A stretch of 64,000 nucleotides of DNA, taken from the NCBI RefSeq assembly GCF_015999335.1, contig NZ_JAEACP010000021.1:28155-92154 (forward strand). The letters are read 5' to 3'. This DNA is from Tabrizicola soli. Lineage in GTDB: Bacteria > Pseudomonadota > Alphaproteobacteria > Rhodobacterales > Rhodobacteraceae. The notes beneath the pieces are model-generated. The model was not told the DNA's origin. It worked only from the letters and a program-made list of their open reading frames with translations, and searched no databases. Made by a program: the position numbers and the translations under genes. Shown piece after piece: positions 53,680 to 55,199 of the stretch (position 1 is the stretch's first letter; every line of letters begins with the position of its first letter).

Positions 53680-53818
53680 GCGGATATCCATATCCGGCGG
53701 CACGGGAAATTGAAACATTCCCCACCAAAGCGACACGAGCGCGTGAGTTTCCGGTAGCAAACCTTGCGGGACTCGTGATCGGGCCGCATCTGACCCGCAA
53801 GAAGCGATGGAGGCTGCA

Positions 53819-54505
53819 ATGGCCGGACTGCGGAAGATCCTGCTGGTCGACGACGACGACGACCTGCGCGAGGCGCTGAGCGAACAGTTGGTGATGACCG
53901 AGGATTTCGACGTGTTCGAGGCCCGCAACGGCGCCGAAGGCATGGAGAAGGTGAAGGCCGGCCTCTTCGACCTGGTGATCCTGGATGTGGGCCTGCCCGA
54001 CACCGACGGGCGCGAGCTGTGCCGCCGGATGCGCAAGGGCGGCGTGAAATGCCCGATCCTGATGCTGACCGGCCATGACACAGACAGCGACACGATCCTG
54101 GGCCTGGATGCGGGCGCGAACGATTATGTGACCAAGCCGTTCAAGTTCCCGGTCCTCCTCGCCCGGATCCGGGCGCAGCTGCGGACGCATGAGCAGTCCG
54201 AGGACGCGGTGTTCCAGATGGGTCCCTATACCTTCCGCCCGGCGCAGAAGATGCTGGTGGACGAGAAGGAGAAGAAGATCCGCCTGACCGAGAAGGAAAC
54301 CAACATCCTGAAGTTCCTGTATCGCGCGCAATCCGGCGTGGTGCCGCGGGATGTGCTGTTGCACGAGGTCTGGGGCTACAACGCGGGCGTCACCACCCAT
54401 ACGCTGGAAACCCATATCTACCGCCTGCGCCAGAAGATCGAGCCCGACCCCTCGAATGCCCGGCTTCTGGTCACGGAAAGCGGCGGCTACCGGCTGGTGG
54501 CGTAA
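53819..54505 (+). CDS. CenR-like OmpR/PhoB-family response regulator
   Basis: Two-component regulator of 228 residues. The receiver domain has an acidic pocket (VDDDDD at 10-15), phosphoacceptor Asp56 in VILDVGLP, the threonine of LTGHD and lysine of TKPFKF. The winged-helix output domain carries [14 protein letters not shown] and [17 protein letters not shown]. The sequence looks like the alphaproteobacterial CenR envelope regulator; no histidine kinase is adjacent. GGAGG precedes ATG 53819. The stop codon is followed immediately by the first structured RNA. Confidence 0.88.
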
Positions 54506-54590
54506 GGTTCCCCTGGCCGCGTCGGGGTCATGATGCGGCTCCTCCCTGTTGACTGGCCCGGCGGACCCTTGGGGCGCCGGGCATTTTCTG
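54506..54590 (+). ncRNA. Structured small RNA candidate 1 (anti-Shine-Dalgarno motif), 3' of the CenR-like gene
   Basis: The 5' hairpin is GCCGCGTC (54516-54523) with GATGCGGC (54532-54539) around loop GGGGTCAT. Single-stranded UCCUCCCUGUU follows (54540-54550). The terminator is GCCCGGCG (54556-54563) with CGCCGGGC (54575-54582), then ATTTTC. Together with copy 2 it shows sequence identity in the loops and compensatory change in the stem. The UCCUCCC motif recalls CcsR/cuckoo-type alphaproteobacterial RNAs. It may be released from the 3' UTR of the response-regulator mRNA. The spacer 54591-54704 shows no ORF and no convincing promoter. Confidence 0.62.
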
Positions 54591-54704
54591 GCAAGGGGGC
54601 AACGGAACTGCGTCCTTGCTGCAACAACGCGGGAATCTTGGGCCTTGGGACTTATTGTTGCCGGAATCGGTTGCTACCTTGAGTTTCGTGCACAGGTTGT
54701 GCGA

Positions 54705-54786
54705 CAAGTTCCCCTTGCCGTGTCGGGGTCATGACACGGCATCCTCCCTGTTGGACCTGGCCGGGCTTCTTGCCCGGCCTTTTTTT
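54705..54786 (+). ncRNA. Structured small RNA candidate 2 (tandem homologue)
   Basis: The 5' hairpin is GCCGTGTC (54717-54724) with GACACGGC (54733-54740), perfect 8 bp, loop GGGGTCAT identical to copy 1. Then AUCCUCCCUGUU follows (54741-54752). The terminator is GGCCGGGC (54759-54766) with GCCCGGCC (54772-54779) and seven T. The stem differs from copy 1 by a C-G to U-A exchange and a G-U to G-C change, so pairing is conserved while sequence is not. The stretch 54787-54890 after it holds nothing recognised before the next gene. Confidence 0.68.
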
Positions 54787-54890
54787 GCGAAATGCCACGC
54801 GCCCGGCGCAGGGCCGCCATGGGGGTTGCACAATTCCGGGGCTGCCTGCGCCCGTCCGCAGAGAGGCTGCGGCACCGATCGGAGAATTGC

Positions 54891-55199
54891 ATGCGTTTCG
54901 CCCTTGCTGCCCTTGCTGCCCTTGCCGCCACCCCCGCCCTGGCCGAGGATCTGGTGTTCACCCTGGTCAACGACAGTTCGCACACCATCGTCGAGATGTA
55001 TGTCTCGGAAATCGGCGTCGACCAGTGGGGCGAGAACATCCTGTTCGGCGCGGTGGAGCCCGGCGTCTCGGGCGAGGTGACGATCGCCGACGGGCTGGAT
55101 GTCTGCGACTACGACCTGCGCTATGTCTCGGCCGAAGGGGGCGAGGCCGAGGATACCCAGAACCTGTGCGAGCTGGCCACCTATACCCTGACCGACTGA
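54891..55199 (+). CDS. Small exported protein of unknown function
   Basis: Not assigned to a family. The 102-residue precursor has a clean signal peptide (MRFALAALAALAATPALAED). The mature part of about 80 residues is acidic and beta-rich (LVFTLVNDSSHTIVEMYVSE, VDQWGENILFGAV, GLDVCDYDLRYV), with two cysteines (DVCDY, NLCEL) that could form a disulfide. GGAG precedes ATG 54891. It sits between the tandem RNAs and xthA. Confidence 0.8.
   Translation: MRFALAALAALAATPALAEDLVFTLVNDSSHTIVEMYVSEIGVDQWGENILFGAVEPGVSGEVTIADGLDVCDYDLRYVSAEGGEAEDTQNLCELATYTLTD

What the first reader, a model, noticed from the sequence alone, without database searches (positions are those of the whole stretch)
54506..54786. 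Tandem homologous small RNAs with covarying stem and anti-Shine-Dalgarno motif after a CenR-like gene
Two copies, 201 bases apart, share a 5' hairpin with the identical loop GGGGTCAT, a UCCUCCCUGUU segment and a terminator hairpin. The 5' stems differ (GCCGCGTC/GATGCGGC against GCCGTGTC/GACACGGC), yet all pairs are kept: one C-G to U-A exchange and one G-U to G-C change. That is evolutionary support for an RNA. UCCUCCC is complementary to Shine-Dalgarno sequences. Alphaproteobacterial CcsR/cuckoo RNAs carry CCUCCUCCC motifs and occur in tandem, so this may be a member or a distinct branch linked to the response regulator.
Basis: partly seen in the sequence, partly recalled or inferred. Interest (0 to 1): 0.82.

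Follow-up and report, generated by a model that had tools for sequence, protein, structure and literature searches.

The report
Tandem pseudoknotted SorX RNAs behind cenR
Directly behind the gene for the cell-envelope regulator CenR, this bacterium carries two copies in a row of SorX, a small RNA known from stress responses of its relatives; each copy is predicted to fold into a knot that the family's reference model lacks, and the second copy likely has its own promoter while the first would have to come from the cenR message.

Summary
Both copies belong to the SorX sRNA family (Rfam RF02784): 54711-54785 scores 84.1 bits (cut-off 46.6); 54510-54588 scores 43.0 (E 2.7e-9 in 401 nt), just below, while its counterpart in a congener passes (52.5). 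The gene before them is the orthologue of RSP_0847 = CenR, the source of SorX in Rhodobacter sphaeroides. CcsR/cuckoo membership fails.

Comparing 125 distinct SorX copies adds three things. (1) A covarying H-type pseudoknot between the 5' CCC(C/G) and the first loop bases (G/C)GGG, absent from the Rfam structure; both window copies have it. (2) Signs of own promoters: a conserved block before the distal copy throughout the genus (CTTATT-N17-CTACCT); elsewhere an FNR box before 30 of 125 copies, with the class-II start within 2 nt of SorX's 5' end in 25 of the 30. Published ChIP-seq puts FnrL at the SorX promoter region in R. sphaeroides. (3) The window combines a copy abutting the cenR stop with a promoter-borne copy, as do 7 of 29 loci in the genus.

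No expression data were available. New variant of a known kind.

The parts
53733..53747 (+). ACACGAGCGCGTGAG, identical to the CenR site listed before RSP_0847 in R. sphaeroides
   Evidence: Sequence, same string in 11 of 255 loci including L001 of this genome and L138; site as listed in a table row of PMC9275681
53807..54505 (+). cenR: OmpR-type response regulator, 232 aa
   Evidence: Pfam Response_reg and Trans_reg_C; 93% identical to its counterpart in L138
54508..54588 (+). Proximal SorX copy; its Rfam match starts 4 nt behind the cenR stop codon
   Evidence: RF02784 43.0 bits, E 2.7e-9; counterpart in congener L095 52.5 bits, above the cut-off
54510..54527 (+). Predicted pseudoknot helix of the proximal copy: CCCC 54510-54513 with GGGG 54524-54527
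   Evidence: Sequence; covariation in relatives
54516..54539 (+). 5' hairpin of the proximal copy, loop GGGGTCAT
   Evidence: Fold; covariation
54540..54550 (+). Linker TCCTCCCTGTT of the proximal copy, predicted seed
   Evidence: Sequence; same motif in 68 of 68 family loci found by the SorX model
54556..54587 (+). Terminator-like hairpin of the proximal copy with T4 (weak)
   Evidence: Fold -21.7 kcal/mol; terminator scan
54616..54708 (+). Conserved promoter-like block before the distal copy
   Evidence: 10-column conservation means 0.74-0.97 in 29 loci of the genus, 0.41-0.47 behind the terminator
54651..54679 (+). Predicted promoter of the distal copy: CTTATT (54651-54656), 17 nt, CTACCT (54674-54679); start predicted near 54686
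   Evidence: Same spacing as in six SorY loci; only place of this core in the genome
54690..54702 (+). Inverted repeat GCAC-AGGTT-GTGC between predicted start and SorX (leader hairpin or operator)
   Evidence: Sequence; conserved in most of 29 loci, missing in L101
54709..54786 (+). Distal SorX copy
   Evidence: RF02784 84.1 bits, E 2.8e-19
54711..54728 (+). Predicted pseudoknot helix of the distal copy: CCCC 54711-54714 with GGGG 54725-54728
   Evidence: Sequence; covariation in relatives
54717..54740 (+). 5' hairpin of the distal copy, loop GGGGTCAT
   Evidence: Fold; covariation
54742..54752 (+). Linker TCCTCCCTGTT of the distal copy, predicted seed
   Evidence: Sequence
54759..54786 (+). 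Terminator hairpin of the distal copy with T7
   Evidence: Terminator scan; z -4.94

Best explanation
The segment holds two tandem SorX small RNAs (RF02784) behind cenR, each predicted to fold into an H-type pseudoknot followed by the same linker and a terminator hairpin, and both would likely block translation of the same mRNAs by pairing the linker UCCUCCCUGUU with Shine-Dalgarno regions. This follows the reported inhibition of potA translation by SorX in Rhodobacter sphaeroides; targets here are untested. The proximal copy abuts the cenR stop codon, so it would be cut or terminated from the cenR mRNA (inferred), and its amount would follow cenR transcription. The distal copy stands behind a conserved promoter-like block (shown) and is likely transcribed on its own from near 54686, then trimmed by RNase E just 5' of the pseudoknot, where the published mature end of R. 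sphaeroides SorX lies (inferred for this genome). The pseudoknot would bury the 5' end and slow 5'-end-dependent decay (inferred). The pair thus likely gives one seed two inputs: cenR expression and a separate, probably stress-type signal.
For: Rfam matches. Stem: all six pairs change on both sides in relatives. Pseudoknot: 117 of 125 copies with four Watson-Crick pairs against a shuffled mean of 71.5 and largest 90 of 1000; 5' strand and loop agree in 116 of 118 informative copies; at least 12 changes of the loop state on the cenR tree; covariation score 0.213 against 0.071, 0 of 500 shuffles as high. Promoter block in 29 of 29 loci of the genus, spacing shared with SorY promoters. Two full copies in 7 of 29 loci of the genus and in L165 of another genus. 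SorX biology from passages of PMC6238624 and PMC9438474.
Against: No transcript of either copy was seen. Proximal copy: below the Rfam cut-off, folds no better than shuffles as a whole and ends in T4, absent or decayed in most of the genus. The 4-pair helix with G-U allowed does not discriminate (122 of 125 against a shuffled mean of 121.1); most of the covariation rests on one pair; on well-supported branches only 3 independent changes are left, too few for a sign test. Sigma-70 scan finds no promoter and the -35 box has TTA where RpoHI/HII promoters keep TTG (PMC3441632). Linker complements are not enriched in two genomes, and a test on potA-like genes gave no support and was flawed.
Confidence: 0.65

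Rival explanations
1. Only the distal copy is a working SorX; the proximal copy is a decaying duplicate kept as the transcription terminator of cenR.
For: Weak fold as a whole and T4 tail; score below the cut-off; linker damaged in L103 and only a remnant in L108; scattered presence on the tree.
Against: Stem, loop, pseudoknot letters and linker are intact in six of the eight loci that have it or its remnant; counterpart in L095 passes the Rfam cut-off; SorX copies abutting the stop are the only copy in several other genera.
Confidence: 0.25
2. Both copies come only from the cenR transcript by processing, as described for R. sphaeroides; the conserved block is an RNA processing element and not a promoter.
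For: SorX is reported as cut from the RSP_0847 mRNA, 116-nt precursor to 75 nt (passages); the precursor end lies 14 nt upstream of the start that an FNR promoter would predict in L138.
Against: Spacing shared with SorY promoters, one of which has a mapped start; in other genera an FNR box at the class-II distance from SorX's 5' end in 25 of 30 copies that have a box; FnrL ChIP-seq site at the RSs2461 promoter region.
Confidence: 0.2
3. A member or branch of the CcsR/cuckoo (alpha-r14) RNAs.
For: C-rich anti-Shine-Dalgarno motif, tandem order.
Against: No CCUCCUCCC in the segment, motif not in hairpin loops, no DUF1127 gene among four neighbours, SorX model matched.
Confidence: 0.02

Closest known systems
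SorX (formerly RSs2461; Rfam RF02784) of Rhodobacter sphaeroides 2.4.1
   Same: Same covariance model, same place behind cenR/RSP_0847, same linker and terminator, same 5' stem; the R. sphaeroides copy also has CCCU opposite GGGG (L138)
   Different: One copy there, two here; the copy abutting the stop is new to this locus; the promoter-like block of this genus is not seen in L138, which has an FNR-like site instead
SorY (RF02651)
   Same: Nearly the same linker CCUCCCUGUUGGAC and terminator; same promoter spacing
   Different: Other 5' hairpin, own locus; window copies score 41.3 and 12.4 bits against a cut-off of 111
CcsR1-4 / cuckoo / alpha-r14 RNAs
   Same: Short C-rich anti-Shine-Dalgarno motif, copies in a row, alphaproteobacteria
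   Different: Motif CCUCCUCCC in hairpin loops and DUF1127 partner gene (passages) are missing here
FnrS of Escherichia coli
   Same: FNR-type promoter driving an sRNA, as predicted for 30 of 125 SorX copies
   Different: No sequence likeness according to PMC4263372; the window has no FNR box

Membership tests
SorX (RF02784) | Score above the curated cut-off of 46.6 bits | tested here: met
   Distal copy 84.1 bits. Proximal copy 43.0 bits, not met by itself; its counterpart in L095 52.5 bits
SorX (RF02784) | Location behind the RSP_0847 (cenR) orthologue | tested here: met
SorX (RF02784) | Hfq dependence and RNase E maturation to about 75 nt | not testable with these tools
   Reported for R. 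sphaeroides only
SorX (RF02784) | Translation inhibition of potA | tested here: inconclusive
   Duplex test on eight potA-like loci gave no support and picked wrong frames
SorY (RF02651) | Score above the curated cut-off of 111 bits | tested here: not met
   41.3 and 12.4 bits
CcsR / cuckoo / alpha-r14 | CCUCCUCCC in unpaired regions of hairpins | tested here: not met
   Only place in the window is 19217; definition from a passage of PMC10746234
CcsR / cuckoo / alpha-r14 | DUF1127 partner gene (CIN1 locus) | tested here: not met
   Four neighbouring genes scanned with Pfam, no DUF1127; definition from a passage of PMC10253847
CcsR / cuckoo / alpha-r14 | Match to a covariance model of the family | tested here: inconclusive
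   No such family among the 16 matches up to E 10, but I did not establish that Rfam 15 holds one

The most novel reading that the evidence does not exclude
SorX is a pseudoknot-capped sRNA with promoters of its own (FNR/FnrL class II in many genera, a SorY-like stress-type promoter in this genus) and not merely a 3'-UTR fragment; the window's locus adds a second, 3'-UTR-locked copy, so that one seed reports both the activity of the essential envelope regulator CenR and an oxygen or stress signal.
Probability: 0.5. Interest if true: 0.65.

Novelty: new variant of a known kind. Interest (0 to 1): 0.5.

Why it matters
In the passages read, SorX is a textbook case of an sRNA cut from an mRNA 3' end. 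A covarying pseudoknot at its mature 5' end gives a testable reason for its stability. A promoter at its 5' end in many relatives, with FnrL bound at the SorX promoter region in R. sphaeroides, would make it an oxygen-linked sRNA as well. The link to the essential regulator CenR joins two lines of work: the main text of the CenKR paper has no occurrence of SorX or sRNA. Loci with both a stop-abutting and a promoter-borne copy are natural tests of how the two ways of making an sRNA arise from each other.

Tried and rejected
CcsR/cuckoo membership: rejected. SorY membership of the window copies: rejected by score. FNR box in the window: none with up to one mismatch. Sigma-70 scan: no promoter. 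Target search: the linker complement CCRRCRGGGRGG gave 29 places in the own genome and 21 in G077, equal to the backward control (29 and 21), so no enrichment; besides the SorX and SorY places, one exact CCAACAGGGAGG per genome lies 5-6 nt before an ATG (L207, L246), suggestive only. PotA-like genes: no support, and the script chose wrong frames; not repeated. Other uses of the promoter core in the genome: none. A Ruegeria and a Paracoccus sRNA paper: passages searched for by term, SorX not identified there.

Corrections and rows dropped. The FNR count (36 of 143 stem-bearing sites, 7 of 15 sites without a recognised stem) contains one artefact of slicing (L165, site 35) and repeated sequences, and its shuffles kept single-base content only; I use the distinct-copy count (30 of 125), where the offset of -29 for L167 comes from a misplaced 5' end. 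Before the pseudoknot counts, of 172 sites 13 without a recognised stem were dropped (mostly half copies, but also L037 and L073, which by eye still have CCCC/GGGG and CCCG/CGGG), then repeated sequences, then two accidental stems (L113 site 268, L179 site 268), leaving 125. The alignment holds 39 copies of one stem length, chosen by a script that asked for CC in the middle of the 5' strand; the window copies have a longer stem and are not in it; L167, the fortieth row, I left out because its loop has 9 bases. A longer-stem set was listed but not counted. One search looks only 700 nt behind the stop and so misses the second stem-bearing site of L033 at 762. The 80 named loci and the genus loci overlap (for instance L015 and L098).

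Full report
What is there. Rfam release 15 gives one match above threshold in the 64-kb window: SorX, RF02784, at 54711-54785, 84.1 bits, E 2.8e-19. A sensitive scan of 54450-54850 adds the first copy, 54510-54588, 43.0 bits, E 2.7e-9, slightly below the cut-off of 46.6. The own genome has a third hit elsewhere, which is SorY-like (48.4 bits for SorY, 46.2 for SorX).

Where it is. The gene before the pair encodes an OmpR-type response regulator, 93% identical to its counterpart in L138. PMC9275681 names RSP_0847 CenR, an essential cell-envelope regulator, and lists its own gene as a positively regulated target (passages). The CenR site listed there, ACACGAGCGCGTGAG, is at 53733-53747. Behind the pair come a 102-aa frame without Pfam or NCBIfam match and an exonuclease-III-type gene; by eye the latter also follows SorX in L138.

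How widespread. SorX is above the cut-off in 30 of 32 genomes of the genus and in 120 of 150 genomes of the family. Of 80 named loci picked by likeness of CenR alone, 58 have the linker motif within 900 nt behind the stop; 22 do not, one of which ends after 129 nt. Within 700 nt behind cenR, two full copies stand in 7 of 29 loci of the genus, in 0 of the 80 named loci and in 1 of 68 family loci (L165, another genus, both copies above the cut-off); L033, one of the 80, has a second one farther off, at 762. Among the 29, six upstream copies have an intact linker, L103 has CCTCACTGTT, and L108 only a remnant. On the cenR tree (34 rows; L117 left out because its gene is cut) presence needs 5 changes and is scattered. 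I read that as an old duplicate lost several times; the tree cannot tell gain from loss.

The pseudoknot. In both window copies CCCC stands before the 5' hairpin and the loop begins with GGGG. In many relatives the two are CCCG and CGGG. Of 172 linker sites behind cenR orthologues, 125 distinct copies have the 5' stem. In 117 of 125 the two segments form four Watson-Crick pairs; with loops dealt out anew among copies the mean is 71.5 and the largest of 1000 trials 90. With G-U pairs allowed the count does not discriminate (122 against 121.1). CCCG before the stem goes with CGGG, and its absence with GGGG, in 116 of 118 informative copies (exceptions L090, L201); single copies have CCCU/AGGG (L193) and ACCG/CGGU (L167). 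The spacer between first strand and stem is 1-3 nt in 112 of 122, the stem 6-9 bp in 123 of 125, the last loop 4 nt in 111 of 122, which are the measures of a classical H-type pseudoknot (recalled). The loop state needs 12 changes on the cenR tree and the 5' state 13; on well-supported branches 3 independent pairs remain, going the same way in most pairings, too few for a sign test. On a gap-free alignment of 39 copies (36 distinct) 96.5% of cells pair (shuffles 86.9%), the covariation score is 0.213 (shuffles 0.071; 0 of 500 as high), and slid versions reach at most 73.6%; most of it rests on one pair (G-C 24, C-G 6, U-G 4, other 2). The ordinary stem shows changes on both sides at all six pairs. 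The Rfam structure line leaves both pseudoknot strands unpaired. A search for SorX with pseudoknot found no paper in the open-access library. The original SorX paper (Peng 2016) is not held; I have not read it.

Promoters. In the 29 loci of the genus about 100 columns before the distal copy are conserved (10-column means 0.74-0.97), while sequence behind the terminator falls to 0.41-0.47; third codon positions of cenR average 0.79 over 28 loci. The block contains CTTATT-N17-CTACCT. SorY loci of the own genome, four congeners and L241 of G077 have CTTG-N19-CTA(T/A)(C/T/A)T, the same spacing; in G077 the published SorY start (1,632,642, passage) lies 6-7 nt behind that -10 box. Against an RpoHI/RpoHII reading, PMC3441632 finds TTG conserved at -35 (passage) and the window has TTA. 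Elsewhere in the family a TTGATN4ATCAA box with at most one mismatch precedes 30 of 125 distinct copies, and in 25 of the 30 the start predicted for a class-II FNR promoter (box centre plus 41.5; rule recalled) falls 0-2 nt from SorX's 5' end. Independent support: FnrL ChIP-seq found a site in the putative promoter region of RSs2461 (PMC4263372, passages), and RSs2461 is the former name of SorX (PMC5036791, passage); the effect of FnrL on it could not be measured there. In L138 I read TTGCGTGAGATCAA (two mismatches) across the cenR stop and TATAAA at the fitting distance; but the published pre-SorX end, 2,598,182, lies 14 nt upstream of the start this predicts, so that RNA is not the product of such a promoter.

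How it likely works. Shown: two SorX copies, conservation of stem and pseudoknot letters, same linker, promoter-like block before the second. Reported for R. sphaeroides: SorX is Hfq-dependent, goes from 116 to 75 nt with RNase E, and inhibits potA translation (PMC9438474; PMC6238624). Inferred: both window copies use UCCUCCCUGUU as seed; the proximal copy comes from the cenR mRNA, because it starts 4 nt behind the stop codon; the distal copy has its own start near 54686; the pseudoknot shields the 5' end left by RNase E. The two copies would then answer to cenR expression and to a second signal.

Limits. There are no transcript data, no target proof, and no test of Hfq or RNase E here. The proximal copy is the weaker claim. 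The named and genus sites were found through the linker motif, so its invariance there is partly by construction; the 68 family loci were found by the SorX model, which also scores the linker, and all 68 have CCTCCCTGTTG.

Noticed in passing
L019, L024, L026, L027, L113, L119 (behind the main SorX) and L072, L081 (alone), all behind cenR orthologues: Half copies: linker plus terminator without the 5' hairpin, most with an FNR-like box upstream (at most one mismatch in L019, L024, L027, L072, L081, L119; two in L026 and L113). They may be oxygen-regulated sRNAs with the SorX seed.
   Followed up: partly
L138:1424-1472: R. sphaeroides SorX locus: FNR-like TTGCGTGAGATCAA across the cenR stop codon with TATAAA at class-II distance, in line with the published FnrL ChIP-seq site at RSs2461.
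   Followed up: partly
L073, about 60 nt before the linker behind the cenR stop: By eye a SorX in which the last pseudoknot loop carries an extra hairpin while CCCG/CGGG and the stem arms are kept.
   Followed up: no
L002:1501-1583 (own genome C1:243236-243316): SorY orthologue of the window's genome, below both Rfam cut-offs (SorY 48.4 of 111, SorX 46.2 of 46.6 bits), with promoter CTTG-N19-CTATCT.
   Followed up: partly
L207 and L246, base 1501 onward: In the own genome and in G077 the only further exact CCAACAGGGAGG (full linker complement) lies 5-6 nt before an ATG of an open frame: candidate targets, not tested.
   Followed up: no
window 54891-55199: Frame of 102 aa with a signal-like start between SorX and the exonuclease gene, without Pfam or NCBIfam match; by eye similar frames follow SorX in some congeners, e.g. 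L101, L109, L110.
   Followed up: no
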